A stretch of DNA of 38,125 nucleotides, from the NCBI GenBank assembly GCA_002069765.1, contig MWBZ01000031.1:1-38125 (forward strand). The letters run 5' to 3'. Below, piece after piece: positions 20,238 to 38,105 of the stretch; positions within the stretch are counted from its first letter, which is position 1, and the number at the start of each line of letters is the position of its first letter. Under the pieces are notes generated by a model. It was not told the DNA's origin. It saw nothing but the letters and a program-made list of their open reading frames with translations, and did no database searches. This DNA is from a bacterium ADurb.Bin243. GTDB taxonomy: Bacteria; Muiribacteriota; UBA9980. The position numbers were made by a program, and so were the translations under genes.

Positions 20238-21122
20238 TTATTCGATGCCGGCCGCTTTGAGCATATTTATTATATCGTCGTTTTTGCGGCGCGTTTGCGC
20301 GTACTGTTTTACCGTCTGGCCGTTATTGTCGCTCGCTTTTAGGTCCGCTTTTCCGGCTATTAAAAGTTTCACCGCCCCGGTAAGGTTATTCTCTATAGCA
20401 TACATGACGGCCGTTTTGCCATTGTTGTCGGCTGCGTTTATGGCGTTCGGCGAGGCTTTTTCAAGCAGCAGCAGAACCGTTTCCTGCTTTTCGTTTTCGG
20501 CGGCAAGCATAAGGGGAGTTTTACCTTTATTGTCGCGGCTGTTTATATCGGCGCCCTTTTCGATCAGCAGCTTTACGATTCCGTTAACGCCCTCAGCGGC
20601 CGCTATAGCGAGCGCCGTTCTGCCGAAATTGTCCCGGGCGTCGATATCGGCCCCTTTTTCAAGCAGGTATTCGATTACATGGATATTTTCGCGGTAATTA
20701 ATCGAGTTTATAAGCGCCGTTTCATTGTCGTTGTCTTTAGCGTTGATATCGGCCCCTTTTTCGACGAGCATTTTAATTATATCCATATTTCCCTTGAAAA
20801 CAGAAAGCATTAAAACGGTTTCGCCCGCCGCCGTTTTTATTTTAACGTCAGCGCCTTTTGAAAGCAGCAGAGCTACCGATTCGCTGTCTTCCTTAACGGC
20901 GGCTTCCATAAGCGCCGTGCGGCCGTTCTGGGAGCGCTCGTTGATGTTCGCGCCCGCGGAAATGCAGTTTTGAATTTCCTGCGCGCCTTTATACTTAGCG
21001 GCGTAAATTATCGAAGTTTCCGGCTTATTATTTTCGGTTTCTGCGGCCGGCAGCGTGGCAGGAGTTAAAATCGAAAACGCCAGAGCGGCGGTTAAGTAGT
21101 ATTTGCGATATTTACTGATCAT
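20238..21122 (-). CDS. exported ankyrin-repeat protein
   Basis: A 294-residue protein with a signal peptide (hydrophobic core AALAFSILT, likely cleavage after LPAAE-type Ala residues near 27) and about seven ankyrin repeats of 33 residues covering 38-290. The repeats follow the consensus G-x-TALM-A ... V-x-LLL-x-GADIN (for example KGADINAKDNDNETAL, KGADIDARDNFGRTAL), one being slightly irregular (SINYRENIHVIEYLL). Ankyrin repeats mediate protein-protein binding; periplasmic examples include regulators of catalase and secretion partners. AAGGAG precedes the start by about six bases, behind a good divergent promoter. It shares its terminator with the convergent metallopeptidase gene; a functional pairing is only a possibility. 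Confidence 0.92.
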   Translation of the reverse strand: MISKYRKYYLTAALAFSILTPATLPAAETENNKPETSIIYAAKYKGAQEIQNCISAGANINERSQNGRTALMEAAVKEDSESVALLLSKGADVKIKTAAGETVLMLSVFKGNMDIIKMLVEKGADINAKDNDNETALINSINYRENIHVIEYLLEKGADIDARDNFGRTALAIAAAEGVNGIVKLLIEKGADINSRDNKGKTPLMLAAENEKQETVLLLLEKASPNAINAADNNGKTAVMYAIENNLTGAVKLLIAGKADLKASDNNGQTVKQYAQTRRKNDDIINMLKAAGIE

Positions 21123-24002: not shown

Positions 24003-24038
24003 AAAAAAAGAGGCGGCAATGGCCGGCCTCTTTTTTTT
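24003..24038 (+). terminator. intrinsic terminator of alaS
   Basis: A-rich 5' arm, GAGGC/GCCTC stem with inner GGC/GCC pairs, then eight T residues (24031-24038). It starts 17 bp after the alaS stop. Confidence 0.92.
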
Positions 24039-24075: not shown

Positions 24076-24104
24076 TTGACTCTAATTCAATGTTTATGTA
24101 TTAT
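24076..24104 (+). promoter_or_regulatory. promoter of the beta-prime-like gene
   Basis: TTGACT (24076-24081), 17 bp, TATTAT (24099-24104). GGGAGG at 24121-24126 and ATG 24133 follow, leaving a leader of about 20 bases. Confidence 0.75.
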
Positions 24105-24132: not shown

Positions 24133-24954
24133 ATGAAAGACCTGATTTCTATTCGTTCTGAAGTGAGCGGCATCGTTGAATATTTTCAGATTAAAACGAA
24201 TAAATTAAAAAGGGTTTTATTACCGGGCGGCATGATTTTCGTAACAAACCGCCAGAAAAAAGAAAGCGCCTTCAAGTTCGGTTTTCCCGAACCGGTCAAG
24301 TACGCTTTAAAATCTCGGCTCGCTTTAGTTTTTCACTGCCAGCACGGCGAAGAAATAGAAGAGGGCGGCGACGTGGCGACCATTTATTCAGAAATTGACG
24401 GCGTTGCCAGCGTAAAGAAAAATAAGATAATCGTCACTAAAAAAAGTATCGTCAAAGAATATACCATAGACAAGAACTTCATAATTCTCGTCGCCGACGA
24501 CGATAAAATAAAAATAGGCCAGCCCCTGGCTAAGATCGTATCGCCTTTTTACGGTATCGTAAAGTACACTTTCGCCCCGCAGGAAAGCGAAAAAGACCGC
24601 ATAAAAAAAGTCGAGTTCGTCGAAGTGCTTCAAAACGCCGTAGCTTATGAAATTCCCGATGAATTCCAGATCAAAGTGGCCAACGGCGCTGAAATTCAGT
24701 CCGGAAGCATAATAGCCGAAGGTGTTATACGCGAAGAAGGCTACGAAGACCTTTCAATAGAAAAGGAAAGCTTCGAAGAGGAAAAAGAAGAAGAAGAAAA
24801 TCCGGCCGAAGAAGAAATCGACGAAGCCGAAGACGATTCGCGCGGCGACTTCAGTTACGAAGAAGAGCCTATCGAGAGCGAATTCGAAGAAGAAGAAGAA
24901 CAGGGCTCGGGCGACGACGACGACTTCCCGCCGTTCAAGAAAAAGAAAAAATAA
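24133..24954 (+). CDS. RNA polymerase beta-prime hybrid-motif-like protein with acidic tail
   Basis: A 273-residue cytoplasmic protein of unnamed family. Residues 1-200 are beta-rich with three similar units: SEVSGIVEY (10-18), SEIDGVASV (86-94) and SPFYGIVKY (137-145), alternating with lipoyl-like turns GEEIEEGGDVA, DDDKIKIGQPLA and NGAEIQSGSIIA. The centre (84-135) aligns with the RpoC sandwich-barrel hybrid motif, where beta-prime has AEIDGVV, ...KEYxLP..., LLVxDGDxVxxGQPL: here SEIDGVA, VKEYTID, ILVADDDKIKIGQPL. Residues 207-266 are strikingly Glu/Asp-rich, ending in FPPFKKKKKK-like basic residues. None of the RpoC catalytic parts (NADFDGD) is present. Start chosen by GGGAGG. It could bind RNA polymerase or act as a biotinyl/lipoyl-like scaffold (no modifiable MKM or DK lysine context seen). 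Single gene with its own promoter and terminator. Confidence 0.68.
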   Translation: MKDLISIRSEVSGIVEYFQIKTNKLKRVLLPGGMIFVTNRQKKESAFKFGFPEPVKYALKSRLALVFHCQHGEEIEEGGDVATIYSEIDGVASVKKNKIIVTKKSIVKEYTIDKNFIILVADDDKIKIGQPLAKIVSPFYGIVKYTFAPQESEKDRIKKVEFVEVLQNAVAYEIPDEFQIKVANGAEIQSGSIIAEGVIREEGYEDLSIEKESFEEEKEEEENPAEEEIDEAEDDSRGDFSYEEEPIESEFEEEEEQGSGDDDDFPPFKKKKK

Positions 24955-24978: not shown

Positions 24979-25031
24979 TAAAAAACCGCCCGGATAGGTG
25001 GAGTTAAATCTTCCTTCGGGCGTTTTTTTTT
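24979..25031. terminator. bidirectional intrinsic terminator
   Basis: CGCCCG (24987-24992) pairs with CGGGCG (25017-25022). It is followed by nine T on the plus strand and preceded by A6, giving T6 on the minus strand. It ends both the beta-prime-like gene and the convergent envelope cluster. Confidence 0.88.
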
Positions 25032-25056: not shown

Positions 25057-26334
25057 TTATGTTTTAAGCTTTTTCTTTTTGACGGCCGGGAATAGAATGT
25101 TGTTAAGTATCAGGCGGTAGCCGGCGGAGTTTTTGTGCAGCGAAACGTTGGTGGCGGGCGAGCCGACTTCGTGCGCGAAATCTTCCGGATCGTGGCCGCC
25201 GTAAAACGTAAAGCTCCCTTCTTTGAGCGTGGAATAAAGATATTTCACTTCTTCATCGCTTATCTGGCCCAGTATTATCACGCTGTCTTTTATGCATTTG
25301 CGCTTGAAGGCGGTGGATTGGCCGAGAAAGGCTTTCACCGAGGCTTCGTGAGACTGGGTAAGTATCGTGGGCGCCCGGTCGAGTTTCGCCGAGAACTCGA
25401 ACAATGTGAAATCGCCTTTATCTAAAGGGTTCCTGAAATATTTATTGGCGTCGATATCTATGTCGGAGAATTCGTAAACGTACGGGTCCATTTCGAGAGT
25501 AAAATCCTTGAATGCGAAAGTTTTAGAAAAATCCAGCTTCTGCTGGCAATTGGGGTCCGCAGGAGTGCCGTCTATTTCTGAAGGGATTATATCCACGCCG
25601 TCGGCGGCAAGGGCTATATCTATTGAATCGCAGGCGCAGCACATCATAAATAAAAATCCGCCTTCTTCGACGTATTTTTTGATAGTTTTAGCCACCGCGC
25701 ATTTATGAGCCTGGACGCTTTTAAAACCGGCGTCGCGGGCGTTCTGCTCGTACAGCCGGACCTGTTTTTGATACCAGACCGCGTTTTTATACGCGCCGTA
25801 AAATTTTCCGTACTGGCCGGTGAAATCTTCGTGGTGAAGATGCAGCCAGTCGTATTTTTTCAGATCGCCTTTAAGCACTTCGGAGTCCCATAGAGTGTCG
25901 TACGGTATTTCGGCGTAGGTGAGCGCGAGGGTTACCGCGTCGTCCCAGGGCCTTTTATCGGGAGGCGAGTAAACCGCTATTTTAGGCGATTTTTCGATTT
26001 TAACGGCGTCCATGTTGTTGTCTTTGATTATGGAATATATCGAAGCCGCCGCGTCGTCGCCGATGGTTTCAAACGAAACGCCCATGTAGTTGGCCGTTTC
26101 TCTGACAAAATCGGCGTTATCCATTAAAAAGGAACCGTTTCTGTAGTTGAGCAGCCATTCTGCGCCGATGCCTTTGGCGACGGCCTTGTAAACCACTCCG
26201 TAAGCTTTAAGATGGTCGTTCTGGGCGCGGTCCATGTAAATTAATATCTTTTCCGCGCGCGCGTCGCCTGCGAGCGTTAAAACAGCCGCTATGTTAATTA
26301 TAGCCAAAAAAAGAATCGCGTATCTTTTTTTCAA
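25057..26334 (-). CDS. exported protein of the family mislabelled asparagine synthetase B
   Basis: 425-residue exported protein: signal peptide with cleavage after GDARA (about residue 28), then a soluble domain opening KILIYMDRAQNDHLKAYGVVY and ending GGHDPEDFAHEVGSPATN, LHKNSAGYRLILNNILFPAVKKKK. From memory, proteins with these start and end motifs occur in Bacteroidetes and candidate phyla under the automatic name asparagine synthetase B. True AsnB features (Cys2 amidotransferase, SGGxDS ATP loop) are absent, so that name is not supported. A CC-A-C cluster (MMCCACDSID) may bind metal. The start is TTG, supported by AAAGGGGGA eight bases upstream and by the complete signal peptide; it overlaps the TPR gene by 41 bp. 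Last gene of the envelope cluster. The glutamine-amidotransferase-like fold of DUF4159 neighbours may be shared (inference). Confidence 0.72.
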   Translation of the reverse strand: MKKRYAILFLAIINIAAVLTLAGDARAEKILIYMDRAQNDHLKAYGVVYKAVAKGIGAEWLLNYRNGSFLMDNADFVRETANYMGVSFETIGDDAAASIYSIIKDNNMDAVKIEKSPKIAVYSPPDKRPWDDAVTLALTYAEIPYDTLWDSEVLKGDLKKYDWLHLHHEDFTGQYGKFYGAYKNAVWYQKQVRLYEQNARDAGFKSVQAHKCAVAKTIKKYVEEGGFLFMMCCACDSIDIALAADGVDIIPSEIDGTPADPNCQQKLDFSKTFAFKDFTLEMDPYVYEFSDIDIDANKYFRNPLDKGDFTLFEFSAKLDRAPTILTQSHEASVKAFLGQSTAFKRKCIKDSVIILGQISDEEVKYLYSTLKEGSFTFYGGHDPEDFAHEVGSPATNVSLHKNSAGYRLILNNILFPAVKKKKLKT

Positions 26335-28522
26335 TTTTATTTTCCCCCTTTATCTTAGCTAAAATTACCCTGGATTTGTTGCTTAAAAGCGCCGACGGGT
26401 AATTTTTAAGAATCGTTTCCAGACGTGCCGAGGCTTCGGCCGCGCCGTCGTTTCCTTTTTCCAGGTAAAACAACGCGAGTTCGAATATCGCTTCGGCGCG
26501 TTTTTGATCGTCCGGCGCGTTTTTTATATATTCTTCGATGGATTTTTTAAACGCGGCGGGCTTTTTTTGCTTGAGCTGAGTTTTATAGAGCATTTTGAGC
26601 GCGTCATATTTCAGCGGGCTTTCTTTTCCGGCGAGGCTTTCGAAGAGTATTTCGGCGGTAGAGTAATTTGCGGCGCGGTATTCACGCTCGGCGCTGAAAT
26701 ATTTATACAGATCTTCCTTGTTATCGTTTTGAGCCGTTCTGATGATTTTAATCGCGCCGAAAATATCGGCCGCGTCTTCATAAGAGGGATATTGGGCTAT
26801 GAGGTCGTTGAATTTTTCTATCGCGGCTTCGCACGACTCCCGGTAAAGCTGCGAATACCCGATCAGGGCGAGAGCGGAAGCCGAACGGGGATGGGTGCCG
26901 AGCGCGTAAATTTTATTCAGCATGGTTTCGGCCGTCTGATAATTGCCGCGGAAGAGCTCCTGAGAGCCTTTAAAGTAAACGCTTTCAAAATGAAAGTTCG
27001 ATGAGCGCGTTTCGAGAGCGTCGAAAATTTCTAGCGCCCTGTCGCGCATGTCCAGCCCTTCGAAATAAATAAGCGCGGATTGATAGAGGCTGTCATGGTA
27101 AAGTTCGCTGAAGCTTTTGGCGTTTTTGACTTCCTCGAATAATTTAAGCGCTTCGTCGTAGCGTTTCCGTGCTTTTAAAAATCCGGCTTTAATGAATCTG
27201 GCGTTGTATTCGTGTGCCGTCGCAGGGTAAGAGCGCGCAATTACGTCCAGAGCCTGCAGTGAAAGATCGTATAATCCGAGGGCGTCGAGCGTGCGGGCGT
27301 AATCTTCGAGTATTACGGGGTTGGCCGAGGCCTTTGAAAGCAAAAGGTTTATTTCGAGCGCATTTTCATATTTTTTAGACATCAAAAAAATCAGCGAAGC
27401 CAGCCTTAACTTTTGCGCATCCTGCGATACGATTTTTTTCAGCGGCCCGGATATCAGCGAACACAGAGGTTCGCGCGCGTCGATATTTCTTTTTAGCGTT
27501 TCGGCGAGCCTCTGTTCTACCGCGCTGAAAAGCGGCGGCATGGTTTCTATCACGCTGAAATAATATTCTATAAGGCTTTTGTAATCGTCTTTTACTTCGT
27601 AAAGCTCGGCCAGCTCGGCGAAGAACACGGTCTGGTTTCCGGCGGCTTTCTGGCAGAGCCGGTAAACTGATATCGCGTCGTCTATCATGTTATGGGCCTG
27701 TAAAATTCCGGCCAGAAAGTTATAACGGTTAATATCGGCGGATGAAGCGATGATCCTGAACCAGTATTGCCGGGCTTTTTCGACGTCGTTGAGCTGGTAG
27801 TATGCGTTTCCGGCCGCCTCTAAAAATAAATCGTTATCCGGCTGCATTTTGAGGAGCTTTTCGTAATAATAAAGCGCTTCTTTATACCGCTTGAACCTTA
27901 CCAGCAGGTCGCCCGCGTTTTTATAAAGATAGAATTCCGAGGGCTTAACCGAAATAATATAGTTATACTGCGCCAGAGCTTCGTCCACGCGGTTCAAAAA
28001 AATCAGGAACTCTATATAATCGTGCCGGCATATCATGTCGCCGGGCGACTTTTTTATTTTAGCTTCGAACTCGGCCAGCTTTCGGTCTATAAGGCCCTGC
28101 TGCTCGTAAAGCTTGAAAAGCTCCGCCCGGTTTCCGATGAACATGTTTTTATCATAGAAGGACTGCCATATTTCAAGAGCCTCTTTCTGGCGGTCGAGCT
28201 TTATGAGCGCGCGGCCCAGATAAAACGCCGACTGCGTGCCGTAGGTGGAATCGGGCGAAAGCTTTATAACCTTTGAAAAATAAGCTTCGGCGTTCTGATA
28301 GTCGCCCTTTTCATAAGCGCGCATGGCGCGGTCGTACAGGGCGAAAAGCTCGTCCGTCTGCGCAGCCGATTGGCCGGCTGAAAATGCGATAAAAAAAAGG
28401 CAGATCAGGCAGGCGAAAAGAGGGCGGATGCGATTTGCGAAAGCCCCAGCAGAAGATTTTTTTGACGAATATTGCGGTTTCGTAATATATTTTCCGGCGT
28501 TATTAAGGTTCATATAAAGCAT
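26294..28522 (-). CDS. exported TPR-repeat protein
   Basis: A 742-residue protein with an N-terminal signal anchor or late signal peptide (hydrophobic core PLFACLICLFFIAF around 33-47, then AAQ) and TPR or TPR-like helical pairs over most of its length. Clear repeats are AYEKGDYQNAEAYFSKVIKLSPDS, RFKRYKEALYYYEKLLKMQPDN and a C-terminal AIFELALFYLEKGNDGAAEAS. Such proteins act as periplasmic scaffolds. ATG 28522 is preferred over the adjacent GTG 28525 because AGGA is six bases before it. It lies 11 bp after the DUF4175 stop and overlaps the following gene by 41 bp, so it is in the same operon. In Bat-type clusters a TPR protein (BatB/BatC/BatE-like) commonly partners the vWA proteins. Confidence 0.88.
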   Translation of the reverse strand: MLYMNLNNAGKYITKPQYSSKKSSAGAFANRIRPLFACLICLFFIAFSAGQSAAQTDELFALYDRAMRAYEKGDYQNAEAYFSKVIKLSPDSTYGTQSAFYLGRALIKLDRQKEALEIWQSFYDKNMFIGNRAELFKLYEQQGLIDRKLAEFEAKIKKSPGDMICRHDYIEFLIFLNRVDEALAQYNYIISVKPSEFYLYKNAGDLLVRFKRYKEALYYYEKLLKMQPDNDLFLEAAGNAYYQLNDVEKARQYWFRIIASSADINRYNFLAGILQAHNMIDDAISVYRLCQKAAGNQTVFFAELAELYEVKDDYKSLIEYYFSVIETMPPLFSAVEQRLAETLKRNIDAREPLCSLISGPLKKIVSQDAQKLRLASLIFLMSKKYENALEINLLLSKASANPVILEDYARTLDALGLYDLSLQALDVIARSYPATAHEYNARFIKAGFLKARKRYDEALKLFEEVKNAKSFSELYHDSLYQSALIYFEGLDMRDRALEIFDALETRSSNFHFESVYFKGSQELFRGNYQTAETMLNKIYALGTHPRSASALALIGYSQLYRESCEAAIEKFNDLIAQYPSYEDAADIFGAIKIIRTAQNDNKEDLYKYFSAEREYRAANYSTAEILFESLAGKESPLKYDALKMLYKTQLKQKKPAAFKKSIEEYIKNAPDDQKRAEAIFELALFYLEKGNDGAAEASARLETILKNYPSALLSNKSRVILAKIKGENKIEKKIRDSFFGYN

Positions 28523-28533
28523 CACTGGTCCTG

Positions 28534-31500
28534 TTATAGTTTTTTTATGGCTTCGAAGTACAGCTCTATGATTTTTTCGTATGAACGGGGATATTTTTCG
28601 TTTTTAATCGCGTCGTCGAGCTTGAGCTCGCGTTTTTCCACTTTCTGCGCTTCGAGAGGTGCGGCCGCAGGAGCGGGCGCATATTTTTTGACCCTTTCGG
28701 CCTTGCGTTCAGTCGTCTGCTTTTCTTTGAAAAGAGCCTGCTGCATGTCCAGAAGCCTTTCGTGAAGTATTTTCTGGCGCGACTGGACTTTCGAATCGAC
28801 TTTCTTTTTTAAATATTCGGCTTCGAGGTTCTGCATTTCCGAACGCAATTCGCGCAGCCGGCGGGCCGGTTCGCTGTCGGGGTCCATGGCGTCGATCATG
28901 CGTTCGAGCGAGCGGCGTATCATTTGCTGTTCAAAAGCCAGCGATTTTAGCGCGTCGTCGGAGAGCTGCGGCATCCCGTTTTCCCCGGCTTTTTTCATCA
29001 TTTCTTTTGTTTTTGCGTTCAACCTGGCCTGCGCTTCGGCCTGTTTTTTTATCATGGACATCAGCTGGTCCATATTGGAACCGGATTTTGAACTATTTAT
29101 TATATCGAAAATATCAAGAAGCATCATATTGAGTATGCTGATATCGTGATACAGCTGGCCTGAAGCGTTTATGACGCCGGTAAAGTCGCGTTCGGCAAGC
29201 ATGGGCTTGATCCTGGCGAAATGCCTTATTATGGAGCCCGCTACGGCTATGTGAGCGGAATCGATAAGGATGGTCTTTTTAGAAAGGCGTGTGAGTTCTA
29301 CGGCCATATCGCGCGAAGCGTTAGACATTTCAAGGCATTTTTCGGACACCCCGTCGAGCGCGTCGACGAACTTATCGTTGGTGGCCGGTCTCATAAGGCC
29401 GTGCAGCGCGGAAAAATCCCTTATGATCTCCATTTCAAAACGCGACATGGCGTTGGCGACGCTTATAAGTTTTGAAAGAGCCTCCAGAAGCTCTTTTTTA
29501 TTTTTGTCCTTGAAGTCGTCGAAAGCTTTTTTTAGATTTTCCAGGTTGCGTTTCATCGACTCGGCGGCTTTTTTCTGATCGCCAAAAGCTTCGCCGGGAG
29601 AGTTTTTTGAAAGATCGTCCGCCGCTTTTTTCATGGCCGCGGATACTTCGTCTTTTTTGAGGCTGTTTAGCGCGTCATCCGCGGCTTTTTTTATGCCCTC
29701 GGATATCTGCCCGATGTCGTTTATATTTTTTTCGAAATTAGCGAAGGCTTTGTCGAAATTTTCGCCGGCCTGACGCTGTTCCGCGGCGAGCACCGAGTTC
29801 AGCTCCGCGTTTTCCGGAGCGGCCTTTTCGGTGTTTTCGGCCACCATTTCCTGTTTGGACAGCACGAATTCGAGCTCTTTCATGAACGTGGATAATTTCT
29901 GCTCTTTTTCCGCTTTTGAAAAAAGCTCTTTCAGCCGCTCGAATTTTTCGACGAGCTTTTTTTCGTCGAAGTTCTGCGAAAGCTTTTTGATGTCTTCCCC
30001 GCTGAGCTTTGTGCGTTCGACATTTTTATTGATATCGCCCATAAGCCTTTTCATGTCGTCGGATACCATCTGCTCGATCTTTTGCTGTATTTCACTTATT
30101 TTAGCGAGCGTTTCCGGTTTTATATAAACGTTGTTTTCCATTTTTTTAAGAGTTTCCTTGAGATCGGCGGAGAGCTCCCTGGCCTCGTTCATAAGGTTCT
30201 GCTGGTTGCGCGCTATATTTTCGTAATTTTTCTTGAGTTCGTAATCGTTCATCGCCCCCTGCTTTTGAAGCGCGTCTATTTTTTCTATTTTTTCCGCGAT
30301 GGCTTTCTGATCGGCGGAGATTTTGTTGAGGCGGGTTTCGATGGAGCCGTAAAGCGCTTCCAGTTCGACCGCTTCGTCGAATTGCGTGGGGAAGACGATT
30401 TTATTTACCGCGCTGCGGGTTGATTTCGGGCCTGAAACGTCGTCGTTGTCGTATGCTTCCGCGAAATAAAAAAGCGCCTCGCCGGGTTTGAAATTCATAA
30501 AGCTGAAATCGAGGACGGTTTTTTCGAAAATTTCCGACGCGCCGCTTTCGTGAAGGGTTATTTCACGGCTTTCGGCGTCGCCTTCGTTTTTATAGTATGT
30601 GAGAACGAGCCGTGAAACCGCGAAATCGTCCCTGGCTTTGACGGCTACGTCGATCTTTCGGTCGTACGGCGCGTTTATTACGCCGGCCGGTTCTATTATC
30701 TCGCACGACGGATACCTGTCCTCGTAAACGTTTATATCGTAAAACTTTCCGTCGCGGCTCTTCGTGCCGTCTTTATCCGTCAGTTCGATTTTATACGCGT
30801 CTTTTTTGTCGAGCTTGAATTTTGCCGAAGCCGCTTTACCTTCGGGCGATATCGCCATAACGAGAGACCTGTTGCCGGCGAATACGATCTTCGCGGAGGA
30901 AAGCGGCGCGCTGGAATGGGCGGTCAGCGTAATTTCGCTCATGAACAGCCCGCTTATCGAAGTGACGTTTTCTTCTACCATTGAAGCTATGCGGGTATAT
31001 TCCGGAAACCTGTAAGACGCGTTTATCCTGGTCACTTCCGGCCGCCTCCTGCAGGAGACGAAATAGGAGGGGCTGAACGAGTCGGAAGCGAGAGACCTTG
31101 CGCGGTAATAAAAATTATACGAAGGCGCGGGCAATTTCAGCGAATATTTATAAGCGCCGTTCTGCGCCGGGGATTGGGTCAGCCTGTAAACGCGCGTGTC
31201 GTTATTATTTTCCGGCGCATCGAAGACTATCTGGCGGTAAGGGTCTTTACGCTCGTCCGCCGTGTACTGGATGTGAATTTCTACAGGTTCGTTCCGGCTG
31301 AAGCCGAACTCGAAATCGATTTCTTCGTCTACGTAGGAAGTGAAATCCCGGTTGGCGGAGATTATCTCGAGCGGCCGCGGCATGAAAAGACCCGCTATTT
31401 CGGGCCAGAGCTTATTGAGCCGCTTTAGCCCGTCCGGCTGCGAAAAAATAATAGCGCTGGTAACCGCCAGTATGCCAAGGACGTAAAACAGCTTTTTCAA

Positions 31501-31947
31501 CGGAGAATAATCTATATATATTGAAACGTCCTTTTGCAGATAATGCTCCGCTGCCGCCTGCTGAGTATGCTCGTAAAGCGGCGCCGAAAAACCGTATTTT
31601 TCGATTTCGGTTTCGCCTATTTCAATTGAAGTGGAAAGGTAGTTGTGGCAGGGGTCTATTTTTTCTATATGCCGGGCGGCCTCGGATGCCGAGGGCTTTT
31701 TGAATACGGCGAAGTAATAATAAAAAACGCCGAACAAAGCGAGCGCCGCCGCGGTAGCGAACCTGTAATACGACACGTAAGCCGGCCCCACTTTGAAAGC
31801 CGCGTCTATGAAAATAAAGCTGATCGTGGCCGTCCAGGCGATAACCGCCAGCATAAGGCTAAGTTTAAGCCTGTTGAGGTTTACCGCCTTAACGGTGAAA
31901 CTGTTTATGAAGTTAAATAGAAGTTTTTTGCGTTCTTCATTTAGCAT
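28534..31947 (-). CDS. DUF4175-family large membrane protein
   Basis: 1137 residues, the characteristic length and layout of DUF4175: an N-terminal cytoplasmic/membrane part with three hydrophobic segments (about 28-48, 60-82, 152-170), a region of beta-sandwich (Ig-like) extracytoplasmic segments (170-520), and a very long charged coiled-coil region (530-1090) rich in Lys, Glu, Ala and Met, ending in a Pro/Ala linker. No catalytic motif is visible. The family has no settled biochemical function; its steady linkage to vWA, DUF58 and DUF4159 genes points to a shared envelope complex. ATG overlaps the DUF4159 stop by 11 bp; GGGTGA serves as Shine-Dalgarno. Confidence 0.88.
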   Translation of the reverse strand: MLNEERKKLLFNFINSFTVKAVNLNRLKLSLMLAVIAWTATISFIFIDAAFKVGPAYVSYYRFATAAALALFGVFYYYFAVFKKPSASEAARHIEKIDPCHNYLSTSIEIGETEIEKYGFSAPLYEHTQQAAAEHYLQKDVSIYIDYSPLKKLFYVLGILAVTSAIIFSQPDGLKRLNKLWPEIAGLFMPRPLEIISANRDFTSYVDEEIDFEFGFSRNEPVEIHIQYTADERKDPYRQIVFDAPENNNDTRVYRLTQSPAQNGAYKYSLKLPAPSYNFYYRARSLASDSFSPSYFVSCRRRPEVTRINASYRFPEYTRIASMVEENVTSISGLFMSEITLTAHSSAPLSSAKIVFAGNRSLVMAISPEGKAASAKFKLDKKDAYKIELTDKDGTKSRDGKFYDINVYEDRYPSCEIIEPAGVINAPYDRKIDVAVKARDDFAVSRLVLTYYKNEGDAESREITLHESGASEIFEKTVLDFSFMNFKPGEALFYFAEAYDNDDVSGPKSTRSAVNKIVFPTQFDEAVELEALYGSIETRLNKISADQKAIAEKIEKIDALQKQGAMNDYELKKNYENIARNQQNLMNEARELSADLKETLKKMENNVYIKPETLAKISEIQQKIEQMVSDDMKRLMGDINKNVERTKLSGEDIKKLSQNFDEKKLVEKFERLKELFSKAEKEQKLSTFMKELEFVLSKQEMVAENTEKAAPENAELNSVLAAEQRQAGENFDKAFANFEKNINDIGQISEGIKKAADDALNSLKKDEVSAAMKKAADDLSKNSPGEAFGDQKKAAESMKRNLENLKKAFDDFKDKNKKELLEALSKLISVANAMSRFEMEIIRDFSALHGLMRPATNDKFVDALDGVSEKCLEMSNASRDMAVELTRLSKKTILIDSAHIAVAGSIIRHFARIKPMLAERDFTGVINASGQLYHDISILNMMLLDIFDIINSSKSGSNMDQLMSMIKKQAEAQARLNAKTKEMMKKAGENGMPQLSDDALKSLAFEQQMIRRSLERMIDAMDPDSEPARRLRELRSEMQNLEAEYLKKKVDSKVQSRQKILHERLLDMQQALFKEKQTTERKAERVKKYAPAPAAAPLEAQKVEKRELKLDDAIKNEKYPRSYEKIIELYFEAIKKL

Positions 31948-32719
31948 TTACTTCACCCGTCGTCCGCTCGCCGTCCGGCGCCGAATTGCCGCCGGCGAGT
32001 TCGGCCTGATTGCTTATCAGCGAATAGTACAGAATATTTACGCCCATTTTAAAGGCGGTTTCCCTGACTTCCGGCGGGTCGTTGTGCGTTTTGGGGTCGG
32101 CCCAGCCGTCTGAAATATTGGATTCGTATGTGTATAAAAGCACTATGCGGTTTTCGTGGAAAATGGCGAAAGCTTCAGGCGCTTTGGCATCGTGTTCGTG
32201 AATTTTAGGAAGGCCTTCGGCGAATTTATAGAAACAGTCGAAAATCGGATGGCCGTCAGGAACTTTTTTTAATTCGTATTCGGGAAAAAGTTTTTTGACT
32301 TCCCGGCGGAAACTTTCGTCGAGCCCGTAGTCGTCATCTACGTATAAAAACCCGCCGTTTAAAAGATATTTTCTCAGATTTTCGATATCGGCGGTTTCCA
32401 GCTTGAGATTTCCGTGCCCGGTGAGGTATAAGAACGGCAGCTCGAAAATTTTAGGCTGGTCGGGCGTGACTACGACTTCTTTGACGTAGCACTTAACTCC
32501 AGCGCGTTTTTCGAATTCGCCAAGCATATTCGGCAGCACTTCGGGATCGTTGTACCAGTCGCCGCCGCCTTTATATTTGACGCGCCCGGCGGAAAAAAAA
32601 GGCTGGCTTACCGCGCCGGCTTCGTACGGCGATAACGATATCAGCGCCGCTGAAAAGATAAAGAAAAAAGCCAGCGGCGGCATTATAATTTTTTTAATTT
32701 TAATCATAAAAATTTTCAT
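31937..32719 (-). CDS. DUF4159 exported protein
   Basis: A 260-residue exported protein: signal peptide (hydrophobic core LAFFFIFSAALISL, cleavage near EAGA) followed by the diagnostic RVKYKGGGDWYNDPEVLPNML, LTGHGNLKL, GGFLYVDDDYGLDESFRREV and a C-terminal TAFKMGVNILYYSL. The fold is class-I glutamine-amidotransferase-like but without a Cys nucleophile, so it is thought to bind rather than cleave. It lies between the second vWA gene (49-bp gap) and DUF4175 (11-bp overlap). ATG 32719 has GAGG seven bases upstream. It probably acts at the periplasmic face of the vWA/DUF4175 machine. Confidence 0.9.
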   Translation of the reverse strand: MKIFMIKIKKIIMPPLAFFFIFSAALISLSPYEAGAVSQPFFSAGRVKYKGGGDWYNDPEVLPNMLGEFEKRAGVKCYVKEVVVTPDQPKIFELPFLYLTGHGNLKLETADIENLRKYLLNGGFLYVDDDYGLDESFRREVKKLFPEYELKKVPDGHPIFDCFYKFAEGLPKIHEHDAKAPEAFAIFHENRIVLLYTYESNISDGWADPKTHNDPPEVRETAFKMGVNILYYSLISNQAELAGGNSAPDGERTTGEVNAK

Positions 32720-32768
32720 ATATTTATACCTCTATTACGACTATTTTAGAAGGCTTAATGCGGCAGCC

Positions 32769-34970
32769 TTATTCCAGCCCGCTATAGCGCCTGACGGCCC
32801 ATTCTATGCATAAAAGCGACAGTATCAGCGCGAGAACGGATTTGTTTTCGAACGGTTTCCAAGTTATGTTCACCGTTTTTTCGCCGCCTTTTTTCGGGAT
32901 GTCGGCAAAAAGCGACGCTATGGAGTCTTTTTCATAAAATCTTCCGCCGGTTTTTTCGGATATTTTTTTTAGGCAGTCGTAGTCAGCGGAGTTATCTAGC
33001 ATTTCGCGCGACGAATTCAAAATCATGAAACGCGCGGCGGCGGAGTCTTTTTTTCCTCCGGCGTCCGCGGCTTCCACTGATATTTCGTTTTCGCCCGGCG
33101 TTTTCGATCTGAAGGAAAATTCGTAGTAGCCTTCGTCGGCCATCGTGATTTGAGGCTTTATGGATTCCTGGCCGCCGGCGTTCTTTAAAGCTATTTTAAA
33201 AGAAGGGCTTATCATGGGTGAAAAGTCCCTGTTGCGGGCGCTTATCGAAACAAAAACCCGGTCTTCGCCGTAATAATTGGCGCGGTCGGTTTCCACTTTG
33301 AACGCGACGTAATCTTCTTTTGAATATAGCCACAGTATGAGGTTTCCCATAAACTTATCGTAAAAGCTGGAGTTTTTTGAAAAAAGCTGCCCGCTCTTTA
33401 AAAACCAGAAGGAGCCGCCAAGTATCGCCGCGCTCTTGCGCCCGGGAGAGCTTGCGGTAATCAGGACAGGCGCTTCGGCCATTTGAGAAACCGTTTGAGA
33501 TAAAAACCTGGCCGATAAAACCGTTGAAGGCGCAGGGGCGTAAGGTTTGCCGCCGGCTTTTTCGTTTTTCATATAATTTATGCCGCATAATTCGGGAATA
33601 TCGTTCCACATGTAATTATTTATCCTTGCTATCGGCGAAAGCCTGGTTATCTGGGCCGCGGCCGGTCCGGAATTGAGGACCAGCTTATACTTTACCGGTT
33701 CGTAAACGAAAGCGCCGTCGAGCTTGACAGGAAAGCGGCCCGCGCACGGGCTGGAAGCGCTTATGGCGAAATTCGGCCCGCCCGTGAAAAGCGCCGAAGG
33801 GCCGCTCGATGAAAGCGCGCTTTCGAGTTTTTGGGCTACGGCGCCTTCCAGCGAGCCGAAATCGATATCGCCCAGAATGATTATATCGAAACCGCTTTCG
33901 ATGTCCGACGGCTTAAGCAGCAGTTTTTCGTTCGGGGTTTTCAGAAATTTATATTTGAATTCGATATCTTTTGCGGCCGCAAAAAACCTAAGCATATATG
34001 CAAAGTCGGCGTCGGGAGCATTCTGGATGCAAAAAATCCTTATCTTGTGCTCCGTGACGTTTACGTAGAAAGCGAAAGAGTTATTAAGCGGGGTTATTTC
34101 ATCGGCGAACGGGGCTAAAGAAAGTTCGTATTTTATTAATCCGGCTTTAGAAGGCTTTAAAGGTATTTTGATCCGCTCTTCGGCACGCCCGGCGGTAAAT
34201 GAAACAGGCGTCTGATGGCGGACTTCGCCTTCTTCTTTGAGCGTAAGGGCGGCGCGGGAGCCGCCGTAACCGCTCTGCCTTAAATTGACGGTTATTTCGC
34301 AGGCTTCGTCGAGGTAAGAATTTTTTGGGTAATCGGCGCCCGTTATCGCGGCGTCTTTTATATTTGACGCCGCGCCCACGCCCAGGGTGAATACGGGATA
34401 TTTTACGTAGCGGGCTATTGAATCGGGATCTATATCTGAAGTGCTGCGCCCGTCTGATATTATAATGGCAGCGCTCAAATCGCCGCGTTGCATCATTAAG
34501 CCGAGAGCGCCGGAAATATCGGTGGAACCGGACGGAGGCGCGGCTGCGGCCGACGGGAAGTCTTTGAGCGGCAAAAGCTCGTCCGAGAGTGAAGCGAATT
34601 CTACCGAGTTGGCTTCCGCTATTTTATCGGCCGCCCTGGCGGATTTCAGAGCGTTTATAGAGCTTTGAAGACGTGAAACGCCCGTGGTTCCGTCGAAAAA
34701 GCCCATGGACGAGCTTGTGTCGAAAACGAACAGGAATTTTCCTTTTTCGTTTTCCGTCCTCTGGTAAGAAAACGACGGATTGAAACTTAAAAGCGCCAGC
34801 GCCACGAAGGCGCAAATTCTGACCGCCTTTAAAAAAAATATAAGATAGCGGCTGTGGGCGGCCTTTTTGAAAGCGCCGTTCACCAGGTAGATCAGCGCGG
34901 CGAGAAGAAATATCGCCGCCGCGGTAAATATATATGTTTCGTAAGCGCCAGTCAATATTTTAAGATTCAA
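32769..34970 (-). CDS. membrane vWA-domain protein (Bat-like)
   Basis: About 733 residues: two N-terminal transmembrane helices (near 15-33 and 45-66), a von Willebrand A domain with intact MIDAS (DTSSSMG, D84, S86, S88; GSTDISGAL; IISDGRS), a Gln-amidotransferase-like region, an Ig-like segment (VSARNRDFSPMISPSFKI), and a C-terminal transmembrane helix (SVLALILSLLCIEWAV). This is the layout of membrane-bound Bat-type proteins that bind partners through a metal site. Start: the frame opens at GTG 34979, but AAAGGTGAT overlaps that codon; TTG 34970 is eight bases from AGG and is preferred, with low certainty. It follows the BatA-like gene after 55-64 bp. Confidence 0.85.
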   Translation of the reverse strand: MNLKILTGAYETYIFTAAAIFLLAALIYLVNGAFKKAAHSRYLIFFLKAVRICAFVALALLSFNPSFSYQRTENEKGKFLFVFDTSSSMGFFDGTTGVSRLQSSINALKSARAADKIAEANSVEFASLSDELLPLKDFPSAAAAPPSGSTDISGALGLMMQRGDLSAAIIISDGRSTSDIDPDSIARYVKYPVFTLGVGAASNIKDAAITGADYPKNSYLDEACEITVNLRQSGYGGSRAALTLKEEGEVRHQTPVSFTAGRAEERIKIPLKPSKAGLIKYELSLAPFADEITPLNNSFAFYVNVTEHKIRIFCIQNAPDADFAYMLRFFAAAKDIEFKYKFLKTPNEKLLLKPSDIESGFDIIILGDIDFGSLEGAVAQKLESALSSSGPSALFTGGPNFAISASSPCAGRFPVKLDGAFVYEPVKYKLVLNSGPAAAQITRLSPIARINNYMWNDIPELCGINYMKNEKAGGKPYAPAPSTVLSARFLSQTVSQMAEAPVLITASSPGRKSAAILGGSFWFLKSGQLFSKNSSFYDKFMGNLILWLYSKEDYVAFKVETDRANYYGEDRVFVSISARNRDFSPMISPSFKIALKNAGGQESIKPQITMADEGYYEFSFRSKTPGENEISVEAADAGGKKDSAAARFMILNSSREMLDNSADYDCLKKISEKTGGRFYEKDSIASLFADIPKKGGEKTVNITWKPFENKSVLALILSLLCIEWAVRRYSGLE

Positions 34971-35034
34971 TTCAATCACCTTTATAATTTTAACGCAAGC
35001 GTTATGGGTTGTTTTAAATGTATTGTTTAATTTA

Positions 35035-37185
35035 TCACAGTTTCATAAAATATGTCACGAGGCTTTCCAGAGACATTAATATGAGTATCGCCATAAATAA
35101 ATACGGCGTGACTTCCGTTTTCTTTTCGGAATTAACGCTGTTTTGGCCCTGGGCCGTTTTTAAAAGCGAATGCCTGTTCAAAACGGAACTTATAGCTTCG
35201 TAATCTCTTGATTCAAGCTCGGATTCGCGGGCGTCGAAATTTACCGCGTATTTTTTTTGAGTTATTTTATCGTCGCTTTTTTTAAATAAAGTATAAAAGC
35301 CGGGAGAGAAAGTGTCGCTGATTTCGCTATAGAGGCCTTCGGGGCCGGTTTTAATATCGAGCCTGCGTTCTACGGACGAATCGGGGAGCATACACGAAAT
35401 ACCGCTTATTCTGTCGTTGACGTTATACGTTTCGCGGATCGTCTCGCCTATGGTATGCGCCCTGGAACCGCCGCCGCGGTTTTTATCTATATGATAGACG
35501 ATCTGGTGCATGAACGGAACGAACAGGGGCGAATCGGAAATGTTGGACGAAGTCCTGTCGAGATAACCTGAAAAAATAACGGCCGTTCCGCGTCCGGTCT
35601 TTTTTTCGGCCAGCGCAGGAATGGAGCGTTCGAAACCGGCTATCACGCTGACTCCCGAATCGGGTTTGCCTTTGGATTCACAGGCGATTATTTTATAAAA
35701 TTTAGGCCGCTCGATATCGCCTGAATTTTTATTTTTAAAAATCGCAAATATAGGATGGTCGTAATTTATCGAAGCGAGGTTGAACGCGCTTTTTTCGTCG
35801 GGCGATGAAACGGGCGAAGAAAGGCTTAAATCAAGAGGCAGTAAGCGCGAGAACGCGGCGGAGAAATTTTTTATATAAGCCGCTTCGGGCGGAAGAAACA
35901 GGACGCCGCCTCCGTCGTTTAGATATTTTTCGAGTTTTTGCGCGAGCGCGGCCGGAGGGTTTTTGACGCCGGAAATTATTACCGCGTCGAAGTTTTTGAA
36001 ATCCAGCGGAGGGTCGTTATTGAGGTTGACCACCATGGGCTGGATTATAAGGCCGTCTTTAAGCGAAATGGAGCTGAGCGGGTTGAGCGCGGATGAAACG
36101 TATTTATAAATGTAGTCTTCGCGCAGCGACTGTTCGTGGTCGCATATTATGAGGACGTAAAGCGACGAAAGCGGCGCCAATACCAGATTATAAACGTTGT
36201 CGAACGCGACGGCGTCTTCAGCGAGCGAAAGTTTCAGCGAATAATTTCCGGAATTCATAAAGGTGTGTGCTATATTGACGTCGCAAATTTCGCCCGCCGC
36301 TGCGCCGAATTCGGCCGAGGCCAGCTTTACGCCGTCGCAGATGAGCGACACTTCGGAGCTGGTTTGTAAAATGGAATGGTTTTTGATTTTACAGGAAACC
36401 TGAAAAGGCTTTCCGGCTATGATGCGATCTTCGGAGGCGCGCGCCTGTACGATGGAGAGGTTTTTGTTATTTCTGGTTTCCATAAGATTTTTAGGGCCGC
36501 AGTCGACGAGCTCGAAGCGCGGGCCCTGTTTGAGAAGAGCGTCGGTCTCGATATGCGCGGCGAGCTTCGCGTCTTCTCCCCTGTCGGATGAGATGAAATC
36601 GGAAAATATATAAACTCCCGTCATATCCCTGTAAGCTTCGTTTTTTTCCGCGGAAGAAATCATATCGGTAATCGAGAATATTCGATAAGTATAATTTATT
36701 TTTTTTATATATTCGGCGGCTTCGGCCGCGCCCAGTAAGCCGGAGTCTTTAAGCGGCGAAGCCGGAGTGTAAATTATGAACTTTGGATCGTTTTTAACGG
36801 CCGAAACGGTTTCGAGGGCCTTTGATTTTATTATATCGAGATATTTATCGGGCTGCGTTCCCGGCGCGGGATAAGCCGTCGAATAAGAATTGTCTATAAT
36901 TAAAACGTATTTTCCGCCGGCCGGCGCCGCGTCGGGGGTAAACATCAAAAGCCGCGCGAAGGCGAATATTATAAAAGCGACTATCAGCGTTCTTATTATA
37001 AGAAGAAGAATTTCGTTTATGCGCATGCGCCTTGATTTTTTCATGTAAGCCGCGCGTATGAACTTGAGGCTCGGGTAGTCTATTATTTTTCGCTTTTTCT
37101 GCGATATGAGGTGAATTATGACCGGAAGAAGTACGAGCGGCATCAAGAGTAAATATGAAGTGTTTATGAAAGAAAAAGACGGCAT
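35035..37185 (-). CDS. BatA-like protein with double N-terminal transmembrane domain and vWA domain
   Basis: 716 residues. The N-terminal double-transmembrane module (F-N-x-S-YLLLMPLVLLPVIIHLI, then RKIIDYPSLKFI and a second helix near 57-80) is the BatA/CbiQ-like family signature. The vWA domain retains D-x-S-x-S as D98, S100, S102 (DNSYST) but other MIDAS positions are divergent. A central region with strands such as LYVLIICDHEQ and DAVIISGVKNP resembles the amidotransferase-like fold. The C-terminal transmembrane helix (YLFMAILILMSLESLV) anchors the tail. Two bases separate it from the DUF58 gene. It probably couples a MoxR-type ATPase (outside the window) and DUF58 to the other envelope proteins. 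Confidence 0.88.
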   Translation of the reverse strand: MPSFSFINTSYLLLMPLVLLPVIIHLISQKKRKIIDYPSLKFIRAAYMKKSRRMRINEILLLIIRTLIVAFIIFAFARLLMFTPDAAPAGGKYVLIIDNSYSTAYPAPGTQPDKYLDIIKSKALETVSAVKNDPKFIIYTPASPLKDSGLLGAAEAAEYIKKINYTYRIFSITDMISSAEKNEAYRDMTGVYIFSDFISSDRGEDAKLAAHIETDALLKQGPRFELVDCGPKNLMETRNNKNLSIVQARASEDRIIAGKPFQVSCKIKNHSILQTSSEVSLICDGVKLASAEFGAAAGEICDVNIAHTFMNSGNYSLKLSLAEDAVAFDNVYNLVLAPLSSLYVLIICDHEQSLREDYIYKYVSSALNPLSSISLKDGLIIQPMVVNLNNDPPLDFKNFDAVIISGVKNPPAALAQKLEKYLNDGGGVLFLPPEAAYIKNFSAAFSRLLPLDLSLSSPVSSPDEKSAFNLASINYDHPIFAIFKNKNSGDIERPKFYKIIACESKGKPDSGVSVIAGFERSIPALAEKKTGRGTAVIFSGYLDRTSSNISDSPLFVPFMHQIVYHIDKNRGGGSRAHTIGETIRETYNVNDRISGISCMLPDSSVERRLDIKTGPEGLYSEISDTFSPGFYTLFKKSDDKITQKKYAVNFDARESELESRDYEAISSVLNRHSLLKTAQGQNSVNSEKKTEVTPYLFMAILILMSLESLVTYFMKL

Positions 37186-37187
37186 AA

Positions 37188-38105
37188 TCAGCTTCTCGCC
37201 CTCTTGACCAGATAATGGTTGAGCGCCCGGTCGATAGGCGTGCTGGTCGAAATTAAATTATAATCTATGTAAGAACGCAGGCAGTTTGCTTTGAAATCTG
37301 CTATGAATTTATTGAAACCGGCCATGTAGTCTTCCCGGAGCGATTCAGCGTTCGTGATTATGCTCGACGAATTTTCGAGGTCTATGAATTGCGTCTCGCC
37401 GGAAACCGGAAGGTTGAGCTCGAAATCCGACAGCAGATGAAAAACCGCCACTTCGTGGTGCTTATGCCTGAAATGTTTCAGGCTTTTTAATATTTCATTC
37501 TCGTCGTCGTAAAGGTCGGAAATTACGATTATAAGCCCCCGGCGCTTTATGCGGGAGGCGACTTCGTTAAAACTTTCGCTGAGCGCCGTTTTTTTATTTA
37601 ATTTAGCCCGCTCCAGCTCTTCTAAAAGCACTTTGAAGTGGCTGGCGCTCGAAGACGCGGGAACGTGGTTTAGTATCCGGTCGCTGAAAGTTATAAGCCC
37701 GACAGAATCCTGTTGCTTTAAGATTATATACGCAAGGGCTATTACAAGATAACACGCGTAGTCGAACTTTGAATAATCCGCGCGGCCGTGGGCCCCCGCA
37801 CCGGGCTTGAACATCATTGAAGAGGAGCAGTCGAGAAGGATATGCGCCTTTAAATTGGTGTCTTCTTCGAACTCTTTGACGTAGTATTTATCCGTTTTCG
37901 CGAATATTTTCCAGTCGATATTTTTGATTTCGTCGCCCGGCATATACTGGCGGTGCTGTGAAAATTCGACGTTAAATCCCCGGAAATGCGACTTATGCAG
38001 CCCGGCGAGAAAGCCGTCCACAATGTGGCCGGCGGCCAGCTTGAGATTTTGAAGGCCGGCCAGCAGGGCCGGATCGAAATATTTATAACTGGTGTTATCA
38101 GACAT
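37188..38105 (-). CDS. DUF58 protein (vWA-like, MoxR partner)
   Basis: Cytoplasmic, 305 residues. The DUF58 signature is complete: GFNVEFSQHRQYMPGDEIKNIDWK, YYVKEFEEDTN and the vWA-like ILLDCSSSMMF (D-x-S-x-S), with a later VISDLYD. In many bacteria DUF58 proteins are the adaptor of MoxR AAA+ ATPases. First in-window gene of the seven-gene cluster; the moxR gene and promoter would lie beyond 38125. AAAAGG lies about 10 bases upstream of ATG 38105. DUF58 and the BatA-like gene are two bases apart. Confidence 0.95.
   Translation of the reverse strand: MSDNTSYKYFDPALLAGLQNLKLAAGHIVDGFLAGLHKSHFRGFNVEFSQHRQYMPGDEIKNIDWKIFAKTDKYYVKEFEEDTNLKAHILLDCSSSMMFKPGAGAHGRADYSKFDYACYLVIALAYIILKQQDSVGLITFSDRILNHVPASSSASHFKVLLEELERAKLNKKTALSESFNEVASRIKRRGLIIVISDLYDDENEILKSLKHFRHKHHEVAVFHLLSDFELNLPVSGETQFIDLENSSSIITNAESLREDYMAGFNKFIADFKANCLRSYIDYNLISTSTPIDRALNHYLVKRARS

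What the first reader, a model, noticed from the sequence alone, without database searches (positions are those of the whole stretch)
24133..24954. Stand-alone RNA polymerase beta-prime hybrid-motif-like protein with a 60-residue acidic tail
Residues 84-135 follow the RpoC segment AEIDGVV...KEY...LLVxDGDxVxxGQPL almost step by step, and two more copies of the S-xxx-G-hydrophobic-V unit flank it. Outside RpoC this module is rarely free-standing. The Glu/Asp-rich tail then the Lys run resembles delta-like RNAP-associated or nucleic-acid-mimic proteins. It has its own promoter and terminator, so it is an independent gene and not a broken rpoC.
Basis: partly seen in the sequence, partly recalled or inferred. 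Interest (0 to 1): 0.72.

Follow-up and report, generated by a model that had tools for sequence, protein, structure and literature searches.

The report
Free-standing copy of RNA-polymerase insertion domain
A group of uncultured bacteria (Candidatus Wallbacteria) with an outsized insertion in their RNA polymerase also keeps a separate, well-conserved gene that is a detached copy of part of that insertion; it may be a previously undescribed polymerase helper, although binding to polymerase has not been shown.

Summary
Window 24133-24954 encodes a 273-aa protein: three tandem sandwich-barrel hybrid motifs (SBHMs) and a Glu/Asp-rich tail ending in lysines. It has its own conserved promoter and a terminator, and is under strong purifying selection (dN/dS 0.03-0.08).

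The whole folded part (residues 9-197) aligns collinearly with one stretch, positions about 180-365, of SI3, the insertion inside the RpoC trigger loop, in 22 of 22 RpoCs of the phylum (profile-profile E 4e-18). The stand-alone copies form one clade apart from all RpoC copies: an old paralogue, not a broken rpoC. It occurs in all four genomes of its genus (one as a fragment at a contig end) and in one genome of another family. An intact rpoC sits elsewhere in this genome.

Context: SI3 in this phylum is 665-1043 aa, against 630-645 aa in cyanobacteria. GreA/GreB and DksA are missing from nearly all 40 genomes.

Best reading: a trans-acting RNA-polymerase accessory protein derived from SI3. The origin is well supported; polymerase binding is inferred. 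Resemblance to the delta subunit is compositional only. Structure prediction failed.

The parts
24076..24104 (+). sigma-70-type promoter TTGACT-17-TATTAT
   Evidence: conserved as an island in G000, G002 and G003 and present in G001 contig C721
24121..24127 (+). Shine-Dalgarno-like GGGAGGG
   Evidence: read directly; conserved
24133..24954 (+). coding sequence, 273 aa, stand-alone SI3-like SBHM protein
   Evidence: dN/dS 0.03-0.08
24157..24381 (+). SBHM unit 1 (residues 9-83), counterpart of SI3 about 180-260 (motif GxVEFFxIKxKNxxVxxxxGMIF)
   Evidence: unit boundaries are by eye
24382..24537 (+).
   Evidence: boundaries by eye
24538..24732 (+). SBHM unit 3 (residues 136-200), counterpart of SI3 about 310-365
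   Evidence: boundaries by eye
24748..24924 (+). acidic tail (residues 206-264; 33 Asp/Glu of 59)
   Evidence: kept in all four genomes of the genus; absent in the G006 homologue
24937..24951 (+). C-terminal Lys run (KKKKK)
24980..25030 (+). intrinsic terminator of the gene
   Evidence: z -2.8; a similar hairpin follows the gene in G001 (by eye)
24003..24037 (+). intrinsic terminator of upstream alaS, which separates the two transcription units
   Evidence: z -3.9

Best explanation
The gene is an ancient, detached paralogue of a three-SBHM stretch (SI3 positions about 180-365) of the trigger-loop insertion of the RNA-polymerase beta-prime subunit. SHOWN: homology and collinearity with SI3, one clade for the stand-alone family, independent expression signals, purifying selection, and an intact rpoC elsewhere. 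INFERRED: the protein works in trans on RNA polymerase. It probably docks on the polymerase face that SI3 itself covers (rim helices, beta lobe and protrusion, sigma) or against SI3 by SBHM-SBHM contact. There it would adjust open-complex stability or pausing, with the acidic tail in this genus acting as a nucleic-acid mimic at a basic surface. In a lineage without Gre and DksA such a factor could supply regulation that other bacteria get from secondary-channel proteins.
For: A profile of the stand-alone proteins hits SI3 about 180-365 collinearly in 22 of 22 RpoCs; hhalign probability 99, E 4.2e-18 over 173 columns. The stand-alone clade has 100/99 support, and AU tests reject grouping each with its own genome's RpoC (p 0.0004 and 0.003). 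dN/dS 0.03-0.08 in body and tail. Conserved promoter. Same place after alaS in sister genomes. Intact 2339-aa RpoC in the same genome. Gre and DksA nearly absent from the phylum. In cyanobacteria, large SI3 contacts the rim helices, beta lobe and sigma (PMC10120043) and is proposed to block Gre/DksA binding (PMC10802570).
Against: No direct evidence of polymerase binding. No gene linkage to rpo genes in either family. The family is patchy (5 of 40 phylum genomes), so it is not needed by the giant SI3 as such. The acidic tail is not universal. Structure prediction failed (mean pLDDT 30-32), so the fold rests on sequence. Stand-alone branches are long, so the time of duplication is unsure.
Confidence: 0.55

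Rival explanations
1. SI3-derived but moved to another process: a general barrel-sandwich adaptor or scaffold with an acidic tail that no longer touches RNA polymerase.
For: Barrel-sandwich domains are widely reused; weak below-cut-off hits to Biotin_lipoyl; only 22-28% identity to RpoC SI3; no rpo neighbours (alaS in one family, rdgB/rph in the other).
Against: All specific similarity is to RpoC SI3, in register over three motifs; lipoyl and biotinyl hits are below cut-off.
Confidence: 0.22
2. An assembly or storage chaperone for the oversized beta-prime subunit: it pairs with SI3 motifs during folding and uses the acidic tail to keep basic surfaces covered until assembly.
For: SI3 is 1009 aa here; SBHMs pack against one another in the cyanobacterial SI3 (PMC10802570); acidic tail with Lys run.
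Against: Not found in genomes of the phylum with equally large SI3 (G004, G008, G010); the G006 homologue lacks the tail.
Confidence: 0.15
3. A phage-derived or mobile anti-polymerase factor resident in the genome.
For: Patchy distribution; many phage proteins target RNA polymerase (general knowledge).
Against: No relative in viral contigs, phage or plasmid records or PHROGs; same locus after alaS in the genus; nearest relative is host RpoC.
Confidence: 0.03
4. A decaying fragment of a duplicated rpoC.
For: Clear rpoC ancestry.
Against: dN/dS 0.03-0.08 over both parts, conserved promoter, ribosome-binding site and terminator, two families.
Confidence: 0.01

Closest known systems
SI3 (sequence insertion 3) of the RpoC trigger loop, cyanobacterial type (630-645 aa, 8-9 SBHMs)
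   Same: SBHM repeats; collinear homology of the stand-alone protein with SI3 about 180-365 of its own phylum
   Different: SI3 is an insertion within beta-prime; this is a separate polypeptide with its own promoter and, in this genus, an acidic tail
E. coli SI3 (188 aa, 2 SBHMs)
   Same: Same fold class; E. coli SI3 and other two-motif SI3s match the N-terminal part of the phylum's SI3
   Different: The stand-alone protein corresponds to the part of SI3 after that region, which small SI3s lack
Alternate beta-prime-like proteins of Beggiatoaceae (PMC4679880)
   Same: A second, non-catalytic RpoC-derived gene proposed as a regulator
   Different: Those keep most RpoC interaction domains; this is only an SI3 piece, from another phylum
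RNA-polymerase delta subunit of Firmicutes
   Same: Acidic, probably disordered tail with a Lys stretch; possible nucleic-acid mimicry (general knowledge)
   Different: No delta domain hit; Lys run after, not before, the acidic part; the tail is missing in the G006 homologue
Biotinyl/lipoyl carrier domains
   Same: Barrel-sandwich fold class; weak below-cut-off Pfam hits
   Different: No Lys attachment motif (AMKM type) seen; far stronger match to RpoC SI3

Membership tests
RpoC SI3 / SBHM homologue | Statistically sound homology over the whole domain to SI3 | tested here: met
   hhalign E 4.2e-18; 22 of 22 RpoCs at SI3 about 180-365
RpoC SI3 / SBHM homologue | SBHM three-dimensional fold | tested here: inconclusive
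   AlphaFold2 with three rows gave pLDDT 30-32; fold inferred from sequence only
RpoC SI3 (as a part of beta-prime) | Inserted in the trigger loop of RpoC | tested here: not met
   Free-standing 273-aa gene; it is a paralogue, not an SI3 itself
RNA-polymerase accessory subunit | Binds RNA polymerase | not testable with these tools
   Needs a binding experiment
RNA-polymerase delta subunit (RpoE) | N-terminal delta/HARE-HTH domain | tested here: not met
   No Pfam or NCBIfam delta hit
RNA-polymerase delta subunit (RpoE) | Long acidic C-terminal tail | tested here: met
   33 Asp/Glu of 59 residues; absent in G006
Biotinyl/lipoyl carrier | Family profile match above cut-off | tested here: not met
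   PF00364 15.8 bits against a cut-off of 22.1
Biotinyl/lipoyl carrier | Lys attachment motif in the hairpin | tested here: not met
   No AMKM/DKA-type motif in the translation (by eye)
Gre/DksA secondary-channel factors | Gre coiled-coil N-terminal domain (PF03449) or DksA zinc finger (PF01258) | tested here: not met
   The protein hits neither; these families are themselves nearly absent from the phylum
Broken rpoC | Relaxed selection, and loss or damage of the parent gene | tested here: not met
   dN/dS 0.03-0.08; intact RpoC of 2339 aa

The most novel reading that the evidence does not exclude
A trigger-loop insertion that gave rise to a separate regulatory subunit: in a phylum with very large SI3 and without Gre and DksA, a detached SI3 piece acts in trans on RNA polymerase and takes over part of the secondary-channel or sigma-contact regulation.
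Probability: 0.2. Interest if true: 0.8.

Novelty: new variant of a known kind. Interest (0 to 1): 0.55.

Why it matters
SBHMs are known to me mainly as parts of polymerase subunits. A conserved free-standing SI3 paralogue would show that a lineage-specific insertion can become an independent factor. It also points to a second phylum, besides cyanobacteria, where very large SI3 goes with loss of Gre and DksA, which makes the proposal that SI3 displaces those factors testable by comparison.

Tried and rejected
Mapping onto the cyanobacterial SI3 subdomains (tail, fin, body, head) by PDB profile search: repeats align out of register, so no assignment is claimed. Phage or plasmid origin: nothing found. 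Decayed rpoC: rejected by dN/dS. Recent copying from the same genome's SI3: rejected by AU tests. Absence in G001: an assembly gap, since the tail end of the gene lies at a contig end.

Full report
WHAT IS THERE. Window 24133-24954 (+) encodes 273 aa. Residues 9-200 hold three SBHM-like units, residues 206-264 are acidic (33 Asp/Glu of 59), and the protein ends in KKKKK. A sigma-70-type promoter lies at 24076-24104. Promoter and ribosome-binding site are conserved in three genomes of the genus while the sequence further upstream is not. The alaS terminator upstream and the gene's own terminator both fold better than shuffles. The mechanical TTG start at 24076 lies on the -35 box and is not the likely start.

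THE ORGANISM. The window lies in a 5.0-Mb, 317-contig assembly (96% complete). Relatives that carry the gene are named Candidatus Wallbacteria bacterium GWC2_49_35 and bacterium UBP16_UBA6123.

RELATION TO RPOC. The best PDB relatives are Thermus beta-prime chains (E 2.2e-6). In its own genome the protein matches RpoC (E 1e-9). That RpoC is intact, 2339 aa. Between GEPGTQLTMRTFHIGG and DIIQGLPRV, in the trigger loop, it has a 1009-aa insertion, i.e. SI3. A profile of the four stand-alone proteins hits SI3 about 180-365 in 22 of 22 RpoCs examined, in one collinear piece. Profile-profile comparison gives probability 99 and E 4.2e-18 over 173 columns. A second, partial match lies further down SI3, as expected of repeats.

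ORIGIN AND SELECTION. Besides the genus, one genome of another family (G006) has a 202-aa homologue, 32% identical, without the acidic tail and between other genes (rdgB-like and rph-like names are from reading the sequences). In a tree with RpoC segments the stand-alone proteins form one clade (100/99). AU tests reject grouping each with its own genome's RpoC (p 0.0004, 0.003). Branches are long, so the date of the duplication is open. dN/dS is 0.03-0.08 for body and tail alike. In the fourth genome of the genus, G001, the gene is cut by contig ends but its tail end is present. Tally: 5 of 40 genomes of the phylum (plus the G001 fragment). No relative was found in phages, plasmids, viral contigs or PHROGs.

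CONTEXT OF THE PHYLUM. SI3 measures 965-1043 aa in families f1, f2, f4 and f6 and 665-684 aa in f3, f5, f7 and f8. Cyanobacterial SI3, 630-645 aa, has been called the largest known (PMC10120043, PMC10802570), although PMC10120043 adds that plastid SI3 of higher plants is about 160 residues larger. In 45 of 56 genomes from outside the phylum an SI3-profile match was found; nearly all lie in open frames of 1100-1600 aa. GreA/GreB profiles find nothing in 40 of 40 genomes (N-terminal domain) and one partial hit in 40 (C-terminal domain); the DksA zinc finger is found in 2 of 40. Cyanobacteria likewise lack Gre/DksA, and SI3 is proposed to block their site (PMC10802570; PMC7026648).

MECHANISM. 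Shown: ancestry, independence, selection. Inferred: action in trans on RNA polymerase. In cyanobacteria SI3 contacts rim helices, beta lobe and sigma, and its head stabilises the initiation complex (PMC10120043). A detached piece could dock at one of these surfaces or on SI3 itself. The acidic tail could act as a nucleic-acid mimic, but it is a feature of this genus only, so it cannot be the core of the function. Structure prediction failed for want of admissible alignment rows, and the piece could not be assigned to a cyanobacterial subdomain.

VERDICT. Observation confirmed; interpretation partly supported and sharpened. Not a delta subunit, not a lipoyl carrier, not a broken rpoC: a stand-alone SI3 paralogue, new as far as the library searched shows. 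That library holds open-licence papers only.

Noticed in passing
L004:7322-10348 (RpoC of the window's genome) and SI3 of 20 other RpoCs: SI3 of 665-1043 aa throughout the phylum, above the 630-645 aa of cyanobacteria that two papers call the largest known.
   Followed up: yes
40 genomes of the phylum: GreA/GreB and DksA domains are nearly absent, as in cyanobacteria.
   Followed up: partly
L004:7322-10348, SI3 about 400-620: SI3 contains copies of the module LxGxxxxxDVxxPxTGEVIxxAGxxIxxxLAxxI that normally lies just before the trigger loop, so the insertion seems to have grown by copying neighbouring beta-prime modules.
   Followed up: partly
SI3 profile A3 against PDB 2xha/2xhc: The SI3 profile matches NusG chains 2xha/2xhc (E 1e-6 and 3e-7; Thermotoga, from memory), perhaps the same kind of motif in another transcription factor.
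   Followed up: no
window 25057-26334 (-): 425-aa predicted exported protein without a Pfam match, conserved downstream of the gene in sister genomes.
   Followed up: no
window 26294-38105 (-): Run of genes with DUF58, BatA and DUF4159 domains plus TPR-like and coiled-coil proteins, a Bat-like cluster.
   Followed up: no
window 20238-21122 (-): Ankyrin-repeat protein with an apparent signal sequence next to alaS.
   Followed up: no
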